DNA of 64,000 nt from Candidatus Electrothrix rattekaaiensis (GTDB taxonomy: Bacteria > Desulfobacterota > Desulfobulbia > Desulfobulbales > Desulfobulbaceae): contig JAVQMD010000002.1 of assembly GCA_032595675.1 (NCBI GenBank), positions 310,001 through 374,000 on the forward strand. Direction: 5' to 3'. The notes under the pieces are model-generated. The model was not told the DNA's origin. It made no database searches and worked only from the letters and a program-made list of their open reading frames with translations. Shown here in pieces: positions 3,890 to 12,901 of this stretch (position 1 is the stretch's first letter; each line of letters opens with the position of its first letter). Made by a program: the position numbers and the translations under genes.

Positions 3890-6800
3890 ATGGCGTTAAC
3901 AGGAATATCTGACAGTTTAATTGCTTCAGTCATTTATCTGGCAGCCAATAAGATATGGCATGGTCTTAACGAACCGGTTGAAAAATCTATTGCCGAGACC
4001 GCAGCTTATTTCAGCAATGAAAAACAGATTGAAATAACTTCAGAAGGGCTAAGGAAAACACTCTCCGGCCAAACCGGCAGTGAAGAAATGCGGCAGTTTC
4101 TCGCTGGAGAAAAGTTCATCAGCAGCGAAACCCTTGCTCTCCAATTCATTATTTCTGATGAGTTGTACACTGGAGACCAATGCCAACTCTACGATACTGC
4201 GCACGAAATATTTTCATATTTCAAATCCGTCCTGGAAAAAAATTTATTAAGTGACCCTGCTGCCGCACTTCCCACCCTGAAATCCATCCAAACAATCTTC
4301 CATCGTATCTCCAGTGAAGAACATCAGATTATCACGGAAAAAATCGTTGAACTCAACTCTGAAATAAAACAACTGAGTGATGCGGTGGGTTCTGCTTATA
4401 ACGATCTGTTACTCTTGGCCGAAAAAGAGAAAGAAAGAGAAAAATATTATTTTGAGGTCGTGGACGAACAGTATTGGGAAGGAGTGAAGAACTACCCTGA
4501 TTCTGAAAACATCGTTCAATATTACACCAGAACCGACTCTCGTCTGGAAAGGCTCCAGCAGGTAGTTTTGCATGAATTCCATATCGCTAATAAAAAAGCC
4601 GACTATTTTTTTGCAGGAATTCTGAATCAGGCTGTGAAAAATCGTTTTTCTCTGATCAAAATATTGTCCAGGGGCGGAGAGGGTAAATCTACATTCATCC
4701 ATCATATCTCACGAAAATATTATACAAAGTACCATATCGTTTTTCTAAAGGAATTAGAGACAGACGGTCTTTCCTGGCTGGAATACAGACTGGCTCAGAA
4801 CACTGACGATCTGCCTGTCATTTTAGTGCTCGATAATCCGGCTGTTTACATTGATAAGCTACCTGCTTTTTTCAGACAGGTTGCTCATGGTTTCCGAAAA
4901 TACAGAATGGTCACGTTAGTTGCTGAAAGAGAATTCAGATACAGCAACATGCGCTCTATCAGGGAATTCGAGTCAGTGTACGACGAAGTATATCAGCTCG
5001 ATTATAAAAATATAAATCTGCGAAAACAGATATTCCGGCAGCTGATGGCGGCTTTAGAGCGTGAGAAAAAATTCAGCGATACGGTAGTGAATAATGCGCT
5101 GAAAATTTTCCTGGAAGAGGGCCAACTTGCTAAAAGAAAAAGCATTTCAGAGTGCATTTATACTGTTATCAGATATCTGAAACAAAACGATGCCCTGAAA
5201 TTTCAATTCGACTGGGAGGATTGGGACAATTTTACGCAAAAGAATTGCCCTGACCTCCGTCGCCTCTATCTGGTCGTGGCGACCTTTTATCAGTTTGGTT
5301 ACAGCTTGGATATAGATTTTTGCGCTGATTTTCTCAAGAGGGCCGATGCGATTGATATTGAGGATACACTGAGTGCAAGCAGAAATTTGCCTATTTGTTT
5401 GCGAGGAAAATATTTATCGCTGCGTCATGAAACATTGGCTGACTGGTATTTGGATGACAGCACCCCTGAAACTGCTGGTAACAGAAAGAATTCAAGGAGA
5501 ATTTTCAAAGATTTTCTTGATAGAATTGATACAGCTTTTTCTAAAGATCTGTTTATCTGGATCAGCAAAAACAAAGATTTTAGACGTTCATATCTGTCCA
5601 GACTTCTTGACGATAAAAAACAAACTAAAATCCTTGAAGATTTTATTACTGAAAATCCAAAGGAACTTAAATGCAGAACCGAACTGAGCAAAATCTATCA
5701 GCAGCAGAAAAAATGGGACGAAGCTGAAAAAACCCTCATGGATCTCTTGGAGCTTGATTCAAACAACCTTCAGGCTCGCACGGAGTTGAGCAAGATATAT
5801 CAGCAGCAGAAAAAATGGGACGAAGCTGAAAAAATCCTCATGGATCTCTTGGAGCTTGATTCAAACAACCTTCAGGCTCGCACGGAGTTGAGCAAGATAT
5901 ATCAGCAGCAGAAAAAATGGGACGAAGCTGTCAAGCCGCTGAAGGAATATATTGCTCTTGATCCTCAAGGACTGCATCCTCGCACGGAGTTGAGCAAGAT
6001 ATATCAGCAGCAGAAAAAATGGGATGAAGCCGAAAAAATCCTCATGGAGCTATTGAAGCTTGATTCAAACAATCTTCAGGCTCGCACGGAGTTGAGCAAG
6101 ATATATCAGCAGCAGAAAAAATGGGACGAAGCTGTCAAGCCGCTGAAGGAATATATTGCTCTTGATCCTCAAGGGCTGCATCCTCGCACGGAGTTGAGCA
6201 AGATATATCAGCAGCAGAAAAAATGGGACGAAGCCGAAAAAATCCTCATGGAGCTATTGAAACTTGATTCAAACAATCTTCAGGCTCGCACGGAGTTGAG
6301 CAAGATATATCAGCAGCAGAAAAAATGGGACGAAGCTGAAAAAATCCTCATGGAGTCTCTGGAAATCGACCCGGAACAGCTGCATCCTCGCACGGAGTTG
6401 AGCAAGATATATCAGCAGCAGAAAAAATGGGACGAAGCTGAAAAAATCCTCATGGAGTCTCTGAAGATCGACCCGGAACAGCTGCATCCTCGCACGGAGT
6501 TGAGCAAGATATATCAGCAGCAGAAAAAATGGGACGAAGCTGAAAAAATCCTCATGGAGCTATTGGAGTTTGATTCAAACAATCTTCAGGCTCGCACGGA
6601 GTTGAGCAAGATATATCAGCAGCAGAAAAAATGGGACGAAGCCGAAGAAGTTCTTCATCAGTGTTTAGAAATCAATCCCGATGATATTACTTCATTGCTT
6701 GAGCTGGGGAAAATTCTCGCCAAAACAGGGAGCAAACTCAAAGACGCTGAACTGTATTTCAACCACATTCTGTCGTTAACACCTGATGACCTTTATGCGA

Positions 6801-7384
6801 AAACTGAACTTTCAATACTGTATACAAAAACTCGTCAGTTCCATAAGAGGGAAAAAATACTGTTTGATATTTATGAAACTCACCCGGACAATATCCCTAA
6901 CCTGATGAACTTATCAAGAATGTTTGTTCGGTTCAGAAAATACAGAGTTGCGATAAAATTGCTTAAAAAAGCCCTTGAATTGGATAATTCTGATTTACTG
7001 ACAATAACAGAATTGATGAAAGTATATGCCTATGTCAATGGCAAAAAGAACGTATCTTTTTATAAAGAAAAAGGTGAAGAAATTATCGCACAGGAAAAAT
7101 ATGTAAGAAATAAAGGACGGTTCCGAAACGCTACTCCTCATCTTTATGAAGATATCGAACTGCTTGATCTTATGAGGATCGGCTATTGGGCTGAGAGGGA
7201 AGAGGTGAAAAAAATAACTTCTTCCAAGAATGAGCAGGAAGTCTTCCAATATGCCACAGTGAACAATCAGGTTAAAAATGGGACAAAGGTTTATTACGGC
7301 CTCTATTCACATGCAGGAAAGACGGTTGCAAACTTTGTTGAGCCATATTTTGAGAAAATTGATGATTTATGGGCATTGAAATAA
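3890..7384 (+). CDS. Large P-loop NTPase with ten near-identical TPR repeats (STAND-like)
   Basis: This 1164-residue protein is not recognised at gene level. Residues ~1-240 are a helical N-terminal region. A Walker A (GGEGKST) lies near residue 265, followed by a Walker B-like VILVLDNPA, as in STAND/AAA-type NTPases. Residues ~596-935 are ten 34-residue TPR units, each starting with the invariant RTELSKIYQQQKKWDEA. At least three diverged TPR units and a unique ~100-residue C-terminal domain follow. P-loop switch plus repeat sensor is the layout of many bacterial conflict or signalling STAND proteins, so a sensing role is inferred only. There is no signal peptide and no clear ribosome site at ATG 3890. 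The stop overlaps the open frame that leads into radC. Confidence 0.75.
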   Translation: MALTGISDSLIASVIYLAANKIWHGLNEPVEKSIAETAAYFSNEKQIEITSEGLRKTLSGQTGSEEMRQFLAGEKFISSETLALQFIISDELYTGDQCQLYDTAHEIFSYFKSVLEKNLLSDPAAALPTLKSIQTIFHRISSEEHQIITEKIVELNSEIKQLSDAVGSAYNDLLLLAEKEKEREKYYFEVVDEQYWEGVKNYPDSENIVQYYTRTDSRLERLQQVVLHEFHIANKKADYFFAGILNQAVKNRFSLIKILSRGGEGKSTFIHHISRKYYTKYHIVFLKELETDGLSWLEYRLAQNTDDLPVILVLDNPAVYIDKLPAFFRQVAHGFRKYRMVTLVAEREFRYSNMRSIREFESVYDEVYQLDYKNINLRKQIFRQLMAALEREKKFSDTVVNNALKIFLEEGQLAKRKSISECIYTVIRYLKQNDALKFQFDWEDWDNFTQKNCPDLRRLYLVVATFYQFGYSLDIDFCADFLKRADAIDIEDTLSASRNLPICLRGKYLSLRHETLADWYLDDSTPETAGNRKNSRRIFKDFLDRIDTAFSKDLFIWISKNKDFRRSYLSRLLDDKKQTKILEDFITENPKELKCRTELSKIYQQQKKWDEAEKTLMDLLELDSNNLQARTELSKIYQQQKKWDEAEKILMDLLELDSNNLQARTELSKIYQQQKKWDEAVKPLKEYIALDPQGLHPRTELSKIYQQQKKWDEAEKILMELLKLDSNNLQARTELSKIYQQQKKWDEAVKPLKEYIALDPQGLHPRTELSKIYQQQKKWDEAEKILMELLKLDSNNLQARTELSKIYQQQKKWDEAEKILMESLEIDPEQLHPRTELSKIYQQQKKWDEAEKILMESLKIDPEQLHPRTELSKIYQQQKKWDEAEKILMELLEFDSNNLQARTELSKIYQQQKKWDEAEEVLHQCLEINPDDITSLLELGKILAKTGSKLKDAELYFNHILSLTPDDLYAKTELSILYTKTRQFHKREKILFDIYETHPDNIPNLMNLSRMFVRFRKYRVAIKLLKKALELDNSDLLTITELMKVYAYVNGKKNVSFYKEKGEEIIAQEKYVRNKGRFRNATPHLYEDIELLDLMRIGYWAEREEVKKITSSKNEQEVFQYATVNNQVKNGTKVYYGLYSHAGKTVANFVEPYFEKIDDLWALK
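5675..6694 (+). repeat. Ten tandem 102-bp TPR-coding repeats
   Basis: Ten in-phase 102-bp units encode 34-residue TPRs. The first half of each unit is almost invariant in DNA, while the second half comes in a few types (ending LDSNNLQA, LDPQGLHP or IDPEQLHP). Units 3-4 (5879-6082) and 5-6 (6083-6286) differ at about three of 204 positions, showing a recent two-unit duplication. Confidence 0.95.
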
Positions 7385-10459: not shown

Positions 10460-10486
10460 TACGTCTCTTCTCTGTTAAATTTTTAT

Positions 10487-10565
10487 ATGAAAGTACCGGC
10501 GACTCCTTGGAGTCGCCCGACAAGCTTTCATGCTTTGTTGTCCCGTCCCAGAGGGGCGGGATGGG
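10487..10565 (+). repeat. Structured intergenic repeat, copy 1
   Basis: Outer arms ATGAAAG (10487-10493) and CTTTCAT (10525-10531) enclose an inner hairpin, GGCGACTCC paired with GGAGTCGCC. A second hairpin, CCCGTCCC/GGGGCGGG (10542-10560), follows, then ATGGG. Two further copies lie at 12680-12760 and 12766-12845. It sits just before the metal-binding protein gene, with the start codon about 30 nt downstream. Confidence 0.85.
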
Positions 10566-10593
10566 TGTTATTAAAAAATAGTACAGGTACCAC

Positions 10594-11976
10594 ATGAAAA
10601 AAGTATTGCGCCCTCAATTTGTGTTCCTCTTCAGTCTGGTCTGCTGCCTCGTTTTCTTTTCGATGCAGGCATATGCCCAGGAACAACAATGTCGTTTGAA
10701 TATCGGAGCTTCTCTGCACCCGTATTATTCCTGGACCAAAAATATCGTCGGTGATGAGGTAAATGTGACCTCATTAATCCCTCCGGGCTCGGATCCTCAT
10801 GCCTACCAGCCGATACCGGCTGATATGAAAAAACTGGAAAATCTGGATGCGGTCATTGTCAACGGAGTAGGGCATGATGAATTCATCAAGCCCATGCTCA
10901 AGGCCATTGAAAACGATAAACTGGTGGTTATCGACACCAGTAAAGGACTCCCTCTGATTCCCGTTTTTGGTAAGCATTACGCTTTTGAGGAAAAGGAAAG
11001 CAAGATCTCGTATAACAGCCATACCTATATCTCCATAACCGGGGCGATTCAGCAGATGCAGATGATCGCCAGAAAACTGGGTAGACTCTGTCCGGATCAG
11101 GCTGGTGTATTTGTGAAAAATGTCCGTGCTTATTCTATGAAGCTGCGTAATATGCTCCAGTCCGCGTTAATGCGGGTTGATATGCTCGACCTTAATAGTC
11201 TGCGTATCGCCACAGTCCATGACGGATACTCCTATCTCTTTCAGGAGCTCGGTATTGAGGTCAGTGCGGTGGTGCAGCCAAGACACGGGGTGAAGCCCAG
11301 TGCGCGCCAGTTACAGGATACCATTAAAAGGATTAAGCGTGCCAAGGTGAATGTACTGTTCGGGGAGCTGGATTATGAAAAAAAATACGTAGATATTATT
11401 TATAAGGAGACCGGCTGCCGCCTCTATGCGCTCTCCCATATTTCCAATGGGGAGTACACAAAGGTATTTTTTGAGCAGGCCATGCAGAGAAACATCGACG
11501 CCATTATTGCAGCCCTGACCGAGGTCGCAGGAGGAAGCACTCCGGCAGATATCTCAGGGCAAATGCAGAATAATATGTCGCGGCAGATGCAGAATGCCTC
11601 GCAACAGATGCAAAACTCTGTTCAGGAAAGTCTTAAAAATTCTGTGCCAACAATACAGCAGCAGCAGATGAATGAACGGATGAATCAGCAGGTGCAGGAT
11701 ACCACGAAGCAGATGCAGAAAACTGTGCAAGAACAACTCAAAGATTCCATCCCGACAATGCAGCAGCAGCAGATGAATAAACGGATGAATCAGCAGGTGC
11801 AGGATACCACGAAGCAGATGCAGGGCACCATGCAAGAAAGTCTGCAAAAAACACTGCCTAAAATGCAGCAGCAGCAGATTAAGGATCGTATAAATCAGCA
11901 GGTGCAGGATACGCAGAAAAGCGTGCTGGAAAATCTGTCCCCTGGAGCACAGCAACAGCAGGGTAAGGACCAATAA
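10594..11976 (+). CDS. Metal ABC transporter solute-binding protein (ZnuA/TroA type) with Gln/Met-rich repeat tail
   Basis: This is a cluster A-I (Zn/Mn) binding protein that captures a divalent metal in the periplasm. A signal peptide ends near AYAQ (residue ~29). Likely ligands are H69 (SDPHAYQP), H143 (NSHTYIS), H209 (TVHDGYSYL) and E258/D260 (FGELDYE). The family domain ends near residue 312. About 145 extra residues follow, rich in Gln, Met and Asn and built from 35-residue repeats. No His-rich loop of classical ZnuA is seen, so the metal (zinc or manganese) cannot be assigned. The stop overlaps the ATPase start (TAATG). Confidence 0.88.
   Translation: MKKVLRPQFVFLFSLVCCLVFFSMQAYAQEQQCRLNIGASLHPYYSWTKNIVGDEVNVTSLIPPGSDPHAYQPIPADMKKLENLDAVIVNGVGHDEFIKPMLKAIENDKLVVIDTSKGLPLIPVFGKHYAFEEKESKISYNSHTYISITGAIQQMQMIARKLGRLCPDQAGVFVKNVRAYSMKLRNMLQSALMRVDMLDLNSLRIATVHDGYSYLFQELGIEVSAVVQPRHGVKPSARQLQDTIKRIKRAKVNVLFGELDYEKKYVDIIYKETGCRLYALSHISNGEYTKVFFEQAMQRNIDAIIAALTEVAGGSTPADISGQMQNNMSRQMQNASQQMQNSVQESLKNSVPTIQQQQMNERMNQQVQDTTKQMQKTVQEQLKDSIPTMQQQQMNKRMNQQVQDTTKQMQGTMQESLQKTLPKMQQQQIKDRINQQVQDTQKSVLENLSPGAQQQQGKDQ
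11656..11940 (+). repeat. 105-bp repeats encoding the Gln/Met-rich tail
   Basis: QQQQMN-type units begin at 11656, 11761 and 11866, exactly 105 bp apart, each followed by RMNQQVQDTTKQMQ or a variant. The third unit is partial and diverged. The heptad-like spacing suggests an extended helical or coiled-coil tail. Confidence 0.8.
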
Positions 11977-12683
11977 TGAGCAGTACTGAAAAGCATAATC
12001 TGCTTGAAACAGATAATCTTTCGGTTTCTCTCCGGGGAAACCGAATCCTGGATGATATTAATTTGCAGGTCAAGAAAGGGCATATCCATGCCCTGACTGG
12101 CCCTAACGGAGCTGGCAAGACCACCTTGATACGGAGCGTCATGGGCGGGATGCCCCATAAGGGAACTATCCGTTTCTTTTTCCGAGAAAGTGGTCGGGTC
12201 GGCTATGTGCCGCAGTTTCTGGAGTTTGATCATTCCGTGCCAATCACGGTTTTTGATTTTCTTTTTCTGATGCTGAAAAAGATGCCTGCTTTTTTCGGTC
12301 GCCGGAGGGCAGTGCGGGCGGAGATCGAGGAATTGCTGACTGCGACAGACTGCGCACATCTGATTGATCGCTGTGTAGGCCAGCTTTCCGGCGGGGAGTT
12401 TCGCAGAGTTCTACTGGCTCAGGCACTGAGTCCCAAGCCGGAGCTTCTTCTTCTTGATGAACCTGCCAGTAATATTGACGAAGTCGGTATCCGTCATTTT
12501 GAGGAAATGCTTATCAAGCTGAGAGATGAGCATGGAATTACCATTCTCATGGTCTGCCATAGTATGAACATGATCTCCCGTGTGTGCGATGCGGTTACAG
12601 CGGTCAACCGAACGATTTTTTATGACGGTCCCGCCAAGGGGCTGAATCATTCCGATCTCCTGCAGCAATATACTTTTCTATGA
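11976..12683 (+). CDS. Metal ABC transporter ATP-binding protein (ZnuC type)
   Basis: This 235-residue ATPase is the energising subunit of the Zn/Mn importer. Walker A is GPNGAGKTT, the signature is QLSGGEFRRVLLAQAL, Walker B is LLLLDEPASNID, and the H-loop is MVCHSMNM. It is translationally coupled to the binding-protein gene by a one-base overlap. The stop codon lies within the first arm of the second copy of the structured intergenic repeat, so the repeat starts immediately at the end of the gene. Confidence 0.9.
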   Translation: MSSTEKHNLLETDNLSVSLRGNRILDDINLQVKKGHIHALTGPNGAGKTTLIRSVMGGMPHKGTIRFFFRESGRVGYVPQFLEFDHSVPITVFDFLFLMLKKMPAFFGRRRAVRAEIEELLTATDCAHLIDRCVGQLSGGEFRRVLLAQALSPKPELLLLDEPASNIDEVGIRHFEEMLIKLRDEHGITILMVCHSMNMISRVCDAVTAVNRTIFYDGPAKGLNHSDLLQQYTFL

Positions 12684-12760
12684 AAGGTGTCGGGTAAACC
12701 TCATTCGAGCCGCCCGATAAACTTTCATGTTTTGTTGTTCCACCCGGGGTGGGATGGTGG
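12680..12760 (+). repeat. Structured intergenic repeat, copy 2 (diverged)
   Basis: Arms ATGAAAG (12680-12686, overlapping the ATPase stop) and CTTTCAT (12722-12728) are kept. The inner stem has changed to TCGGG paired with CCCGA. The second hairpin is CCACCC with GGGTGG. The sequence differs from copies 1 and 3 while the pairing is kept. Confidence 0.75.
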
Positions 12761-12765
12761 TTTAT

Positions 12766-12845
12766 GTGAAAGTACCGGGTGACTCTTTGGAGTCGCCTGA
12801 CCAGCTTTCATTTTTTATTGTCCCGGCCCAGGGGGCCGGGATGGG
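12766..12845 (+). repeat. Structured intergenic repeat, copy 3
   Basis: Arms GTGAAAG and CTTTCAT (12805-12811) enclose GGTGACTC/GAGTCGCC, and a second hairpin CCCGGCCC/GGGCCGGG follows, ending in ATGGG at 12845. It is adjacent to copy 2 in direct orientation and lies 57 nt before the permease start. Confidence 0.85.
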
Positions 12846-12901
12846 AATTATATGATAAGCTGTTGTAAAGCTTATTTATCCTCAAGGCTTATCTGGACGA
12901 T

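What the first reader, a model, noticed from the sequence alone, without database searches (positions are those of the whole stretch)
10487..12845. Covarying structured repeats inside a metal-uptake operon
Three direct copies of an ~80-nt element sit before the binding protein gene and, in tandem, between ATPase and permease genes. Outer arms ATGAAAG/CTTTCAT are kept; inner stems change while pairing is preserved (C-G vs T-G in the first hairpin, T-G vs G-C in the second; copy 2 replaces whole stems). The same start-like ATGAAAG lies at the ATPase stop. This supports a real RNA or DNA structure: a metal-responsive element, an mRNA processing or stability site, or a miniature mobile element that favours operons.
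Basis: partly seen in the sequence, partly recalled or inferred. Interest (0 to 1): 0.78.

Follow-up and report, generated by a model that had tools for sequence, protein, structure and literature searches.

The report
Hairpin mini-mobile element in cable bacteria
The three structured repeats in this metal-transporter operon are copies of an apparently undescribed, roughly 85-letter jumping DNA element with two hairpins, scattered by the dozen through cable-bacterium genomes and related sulfur bacteria; it has nothing specific to do with metals.

Summary
Three ~85-nt two-hairpin repeats lie at window 10486-10570, 12679-12764 and 12765-12851 in a ZnuA/ATPase/ABC-3 permease operon of a Ca. Electrothrix (cable bacterium). 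Every Electrothrix genome examined (8/8) holds 17-69 detectable copies, and related copies occur in other genera and families of the order. Sequence blocks TTTATATGAAAG, CTTTCATGTTTYGTTGT and ATGGGTGTTA are conserved; both stems change freely while pairing is kept (91% of cells paired against 41-54% when slid; 21 of 27 pairs with double changes). The metal-responsive RNA reading fails: neighbouring genes are unrelated (GatB, ClpX, topoisomerase, glutamine synthetase), copies face both ways relative to genes, and orthologous operons lack them. At least four sites are empty in sister species; two junctions are clean: an ~85-nt insertion directly 3' of TTTA. Tandem copies abut through one (T)TTA. 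It is therefore a non-autonomous miniature mobile element. Its mobilising enzyme was not found. A Y1/HUH (IS200/IS605- or RAYT-like) transposase acting in trans on single-stranded hairpins is the favoured guess, but no copy flanks such a gene and there is no replication-strand bias. New variant of a known kind; moderate interest.

The parts
10486..10570 (+). Copy 1 of the element, TATGAAAG...GTTA, inserted 3' of TTTA (10482-10485), between the DUF6162-like gene and the ZnuA gene
   Evidence: clean empty site in Ca. E. aarhusensis
10487..10531 (+). Hairpin 1 of copy 1: outer arms ATGAAAG/CTTTCAT around the inner stem GGCGACTCC/GGAGTCGCC
   Evidence: covariation
10541..10562 (+). Hairpin 2 of copy 1 (TCCCGTCCC aga GGGGCGGGA), preceded by the conserved TTTGTTGT and followed by ATGGGTGTTA
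   Evidence: covariation
12679..12764 (+). Copy 2, divergent stems; its left end overlaps and supplies the stop codon of the ATPase gene; absent in G003 and G005, which carry a single copy at this place
   Evidence: (67.3 bits)
12765..12851 (+). Copy 3, head-to-tail with copy 2 through a GTTTA junction; site empty in G002, G004, G007
   Evidence: (95.2 bits)
10482..10485 (+). TTTA target motif of copy 1, also present in the empty site
10594..11976 (+). ZnuA-like metal-binding protein gene (host operon)
   Evidence: PF01297, E 8e-49
11976..12683 (+). ABC transporter ATPase gene (host operon)
   Evidence: PF00005
12902..13795 (+). ABC-3 family permease gene (host operon)
   Evidence: PF00950, E 5.7e-53

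Best explanation
The repeats are copies of a non-autonomous miniature mobile element of about 85 nt. SHOWN: it is dispersed in dozens of copies, sits almost only between genes, has two hairpins whose stems are kept by compensatory change while short flanking motifs stay fixed, is present or absent at orthologous sites, inserts precisely 3' of a TTTA-like sequence, and forms head-to-tail arrays joined by one (T)TTA. INFERRED: a protein acting in trans recognises the folded DNA (hairpins plus TATGAAAG, GTTTYGTTGT and ATGGGTGTTA), cuts at the TTA motifs and moves the unit into a new TTTA site, including the ends of resident copies. The most likely actor is a Y1/HUH tyrosine transposase of the IS200/IS605 or RAYT kind working on single-stranded DNA (my estimate 0.4 for this step). 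In this operon the insertions only add structured spacer, and copy 2 donates the ATPase stop codon. The confidence given is for the mobile-element statement as a whole, not for the enzyme.
For: Copies: 29 at E<0.01 and 38 at E<1 in this genome; 17-69 per genome in all 8 Electrothrix genomes (lower bounds, since only part of the candidates is scored); about 29 closely similar copies in another genus, G012; clear relatives with other stems in further families. Insertion: E. aarhusensis AAATTTTTATTAAAAAAACG against AAATTTTTA[TATGAAAG..GGGTGTTA]TTAAAAAATAG; G004/G007 AAAACTATTTAACTGAAT against AAAACTATTTA[TATGAAAG..GGAAGTTTA]ACTGAAT; ATPase/permease junction empty in G002, G004, G007; a fourth site filled in G000, G005, G006 and lacking the element in G003. 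Tandem junctions G(T)TTATATGAAAG at about ten places. Covariation: 91.0% of cells paired against 41-54% slid, 21/27 pairs with double changes; unfitted MAFFT alignment 91.4% against 41-55%; copies mostly from other genera 87.7% against 37-46%. Context: 53 of 61 intergenic, no fixed orientation; neighbours unrelated. DNA-level: in the variable part of hairpin 2, G.T mispairs do not exceed A.C (17:20), so no RNA-style wobble excess there.
Against: No autonomous parent found: among about 55 Y1_Tnp loci scanned with the models, the only solid element match lies 1.1 kb from the gene, within chance at that density; no left-end-only copy leads to a transposase gene in the DNA fetched. No replication-strand bias (29:17, 19:18, 17:21), which IS608-type single-strand insertion would predict unless rearrangement erased it. 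TTTA or TTA occurs at both ends, so a 4-nt target duplication cannot be fully excluded. Single copies in distant genera could also mean retained function. Hairpin 1 shows more G.T than A.C mispairs (97:58), though the alignment was fitted to an RNA model.
Confidence: 0.9

Rival explanations
1. A structured cis-regulatory or processing RNA (metal-responsive element, mRNA stabiliser or processing site) maintained for its function in operons.
For: Strong pairing and covariation; sits inside polycistronic regions; hairpin 1 shows more G.T than A.C mispairs (97:58).
Against: Both orientations relative to co-directional genes (11 sense, 21 antisense); unrelated neighbours; absent from the same operon in sister species; no Rfam relative; no wobble excess in hairpin 2.
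Confidence: 0.05
2. A REP/REPIN-type element mobilised by a resident RAYT (Y1 transposase). This is a narrower form of the mobile-element reading.
For: Small hairpin repeats, extragenic, tandem arrays, stems diverging between species while tags stay fixed; all 22 element-bearing genomes examined hold Y1_Tnp genes.
Against: No GTAG or CGTC tag; ~85 nt unit of two unlike hairpins in fixed head-to-tail order rather than inverted REPs; no element directly flanks a Y1 gene; Y1 genes are also common without the element (G025 has 13 and no element hit).
Confidence: 0.3
3. A PATE: a derivative of an IS200/IS605-family transposon reduced to its near-terminal palindromes, with a TTTA target. This too is a narrower form of the mobile-element reading.
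For: Two subterminal palindromes, no terminal inverted repeats, insertion 3' of a short fixed motif with no clear duplication, as described for PATEs. The left foot AART could act as a guide for TTNA by the IS608 rule (own knowledge, not tested).
Against: No IS605-type element with these ends was found; the block joining the two hairpins (CTTTCATGTTTYGTTGT) is conserved across genera, whereas an internal-deletion scar should vary; the right end does not fit the same guide rule; no strand bias.
Confidence: 0.2
4. A conventional MITE moved by a DDE transposase with a 4-nt A/T target duplication.
For: TTTA or TTAT occurs at both junctions of the clean insertions.
Against: The two ends are not inverted repeats of each other; right ends in G012 vary (GTTC, GTTG, GTCA) while left ends stay TTTA, unlike a duplication.
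Confidence: 0.15

Closest known systems
REP/REPIN elements with RAYT transposases (PMC3116915, PMC3733652, PMC8266576)
   Same: Short extragenic hairpin DNA repeats, species-specific stems with fixed tags, clusters, trans-mobilised, no own gene
   Different: No GTAG/CGTC tag, longer two-hairpin unit in fixed order, TTTA insertion motif, no linked RAYT found
PATEs, palindrome-associated transposable elements related to IS605 transposons (PMC3119063)
   Same: No terminal inverted repeats, near-terminal palindromes, no clear target duplication, too short to code
   Different: Conserved block between the hairpins across genera; no related IS605-type parent found
Bacterial MITEs (review PMC10969869)
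   Same: Non-autonomous, small, dispersed, intergenic
   Different: Lacks terminal inverted repeats; target duplication not demonstrated

Membership tests
REP (GTAG/CGTC tagged) | GTAG or CGTC unpaired tag at the foot of the palindrome | tested here: not met
   Electrothrix copies mostly read GAAAGTAC at the hairpin foot, other genera GAAAGTCT, GAAAGTCA or GAAAATCA; no fixed GTAG/CGTC
REP/REPIN | RAYT gene flanked by the repeats in at least some genomes | tested here: not met
   R1/R2 scans of Y1_Tnp loci found no adjoining element; not every Y1 locus was fetched
REP/REPIN | Extragenic hairpin repeat in many copies with stem pairing kept | tested here: met
PATE / IS200-IS605 derivative | Near-terminal palindromes without terminal inverted repeats | tested here: met
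   Structure and ends
PATE / IS200-IS605 derivative | No target duplication, fixed 4-5 nt target on the left | tested here: inconclusive
   TTTA on the left at the clean sites, but TTTA/TTA also at the right end
PATE / IS200-IS605 derivative | Shares ends with an autonomous IS605-type transposon | tested here: not met
   None found in the loci examined; the whole order was not searched exhaustively
IS608/ISDra2-type single-strand transposition | Insertion bias toward one replication strand | tested here: not met
   29:17, 19:18, 17:21; origin and terminus only roughly placed from sampled GC skew
MITE (DDE) | Terminal inverted repeats | tested here: not met
   Left TATGAAAG, right ATGGGTGTTA
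Rfam RNA families | Score at or above a family's gathering threshold | tested here: not met
   No element matched
Metal riboswitch | Conserved association with metal genes in one orientation | tested here: not met

The most novel reading that the evidence does not exclude
An order-wide family of transposase-free elements with a conserved inter-hairpin recognition core (CTTTCATGTTTYGTTGT) and freely exchangeable stems, moved by an enzyme or route not yet described and targeting TTTA sites, including the ends of its own copies, to build head-to-tail arrays.
Probability: 0.3. Interest if true: 0.6.

Novelty: new variant of a known kind. Interest (0 to 1): 0.45.

Why it matters
Cable bacteria are uncultured electricity-conducting bacteria whose genomes are known to be rich in insertion sequences. 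The cable-bacterium genome papers I could search mention IS elements or repeats but no miniature elements of this type. This family adds dozens of structured insertions per genome, some inside conserved operons and one supplying a stop codon, and would mislead searches for RNA regulators. The fixed core with exchangeable stems makes DNA-hairpin recognition directly testable with synthetic oligonucleotides.

Tried and rejected
Rfam at gathering and permissive thresholds: nothing relevant. A link to IS200 ends through TTTTGTTGTC next to hairpins: dropped, because the motif lies at opposite sides of the transposase gene in the two elements once locus orientation is taken into account. Viral-contig hits to the core 17-mer: no hairpin element around them and no model match, judged chance. 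Plasmid search: none. Lagging-strand bias: none. Strand-specific wobble test: inconclusive overall. Comparison of G004 with G007 for new insertions: mostly shared or rearranged, uninformative. Search for autonomous copies among left-end-only matches: decayed copies or chance only.

Full report
Observation. The three repeats exist as described. Using the empty-site comparisons below, the units run 10486-10570, 12679-12764 and 12765-12851. Each has a first hairpin with outer arms ATGAAAG/CTTTCAT, a fixed spacer (TTTTGTTG type) and a second G+C-rich hairpin. The arm pattern is far above chance (2 matches, 0.02 expected), and copies 1 and 3 fold much better than shuffles as RNA and as DNA. The operon is a ZnuA / ATPase / ABC-3 permease set. 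Close relatives of the permease are from Ca. Electrothrix, so the window is from a cable bacterium.

A dispersed family. BLAST with copy 1 found 26 places in the genome at E<=1. A covariance model built from 14 copies found 29 at E<0.01, and all eight genomes of the genus hold 17-69; these are lower bounds because only part of the candidates is scored. A pattern for the left end had dozens of hits in the eight genomes, against two for the reversed control. A second model found 15 copies in G012, another genus of the family, and one to three copies in other genera and families of the order. BLAST raised G012 to about 29 copies, mostly full-length and 85-99% alike.

What is conserved. Across genera the nearly invariant parts are TTTATATGAAAG at the left, CTTTCATGTTTYGTTGT between the hairpins and ATGGGTGTTA at the right; stem sequences and hairpin 1 length differ by genus. 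Pairing is maintained: 91.0% of cells paired with 21 of 27 pairs doubly changed in 70 distinct copies, 91.4% in the MAFFT alignment and 87.7% in 22 copies from outside the genus (one of these loci had also entered the model). Slid controls give 37-55%. Searches use alignments fitted to the model, which favours it; the alignment was not fitted, although its structure was derived from the same sequences.

Mobility. Copy 1: E. aarhusensis has the same flanks without the element, AAATTTTTATTAAAAAAACG. Copies 2 and 3: G002, G004 and G007 lack both, G003 and G005 have one, G000 and G006 have two. A third site (C2:507598) is empty in G001, G002, G004 and G007, with a clean junction in G004 and G007, AAAACTATTTAACTGAAT. 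A fourth (C1:1598316) is filled in G000, G005 and G006 and lacks the element in G003. In the same operon another copy in reverse orientation lies downstream of the permease in several relatives but not in G000 or G003. The simplest reading is insertion of TATGAAAG...GTT(T)A 3' of TTTA. Because TTTA or TTA is at both ends, a 4-nt duplication is not fully excluded, but right ends in G012 vary independently of the left TTTA. Head-to-tail copies abut through one (T)TTA, as expected if element ends serve as targets. I did not polarise every site on a species tree, so excision at some sites is possible; presence/absence is shown either way.

Not a metal or RNA regulator. In 61 loci the element is intergenic in 53, with 11 sense and 21 antisense placements between co-directional genes, 11 divergent and 4 convergent (genes called by a simple ORF rule). 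Neighbours include GatB, class-V aminotransferase, ClpX, a radical-SAM aminomutase-like protein, topoisomerase, MlaA, glutamine synthetase and diaminopimelate epimerase. No Rfam family matches. Hairpin 2 shows no G.T over A.C excess (17:20).

Mechanism. A unit with fixed motifs, paired but exchangeable stems and a short fixed target suggests recognition of folded single-stranded DNA, as for IS200/IS605 and RAYT transposases (PMC8266576, PMC3119063). Y1_Tnp genes are present in all 22 element-bearing genomes examined. However, none of the scanned loci was directly flanked by the element, orientation shows no replication-strand bias, and no autonomous copy was seen. The enzyme therefore remains inferred (0.4). 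The IS608 guide rule (own knowledge) fits the left end (AART for TTNA) but not the right end, and I give it little weight.

Novelty. It resembles REPs/REPINs and PATEs but fails defining features of each (see membership tests). The cable-bacterium genome papers I could search describe insertion sequences or repeats, not this family, and the literature searches found no report linking miniature elements to cable bacteria, though only open-licence papers are held. I rate it a new variant of a known kind.

Noticed in passing
window 11583-11897: The ZnuA-like protein ends in three ~35-residue Gln/Met-rich repeats (105-nt tandem repeats, 73-79% alike) beyond the PF01297 domain; the length of this tail appears to vary among relatives.
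   Followed up: no
window 3890-7384: Large protein with many near-identical 34-residue TPR-like repeats (ELSKIYQQQKKWDEAEKILM) and a different N-terminal part.
   Followed up: no
L079:2398-2487, L078:2400-2487, L082:2396-2477: A further copy in reverse orientation lies downstream of the permease in several relatives but is absent in the window genome, so the same short operon was hit at three places.
   Followed up: partly
L319:2456-2605; upstream of the elements in L299, L301, L309, L318, L329, L330: G012 holds a second subtype (TTTATCCGAAAATCAC...GTGATTTTCATAGGT...CTGTTGTGGCTGG...CCAGCCATGCTGG) with internal CGGAGTCTCCCTTCGGTCGCTTACC repeats; the first subtype repeatedly sits at its right end. 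One hybrid carries a tRNA T-arm-like hairpin (GGCCGGGTTCAAATCCGGCC).
   Followed up: partly
L134 at 1500, L142 at 1500: G002 has minimal palindromes that look like hairpin 1 alone (TTTATATGAAAGTATCGACTTTCATAT), possibly solo remnants.
   Followed up: no
L157 and L209, right end of the tandem array: One tandem array ends directly at a gene start reading TTTATATGAAAGCA (product looks like carbamoyl-phosphate synthase small subunit), so the native start region mimics the element's left end; possible target preference beyond TTTA.
   Followed up: no
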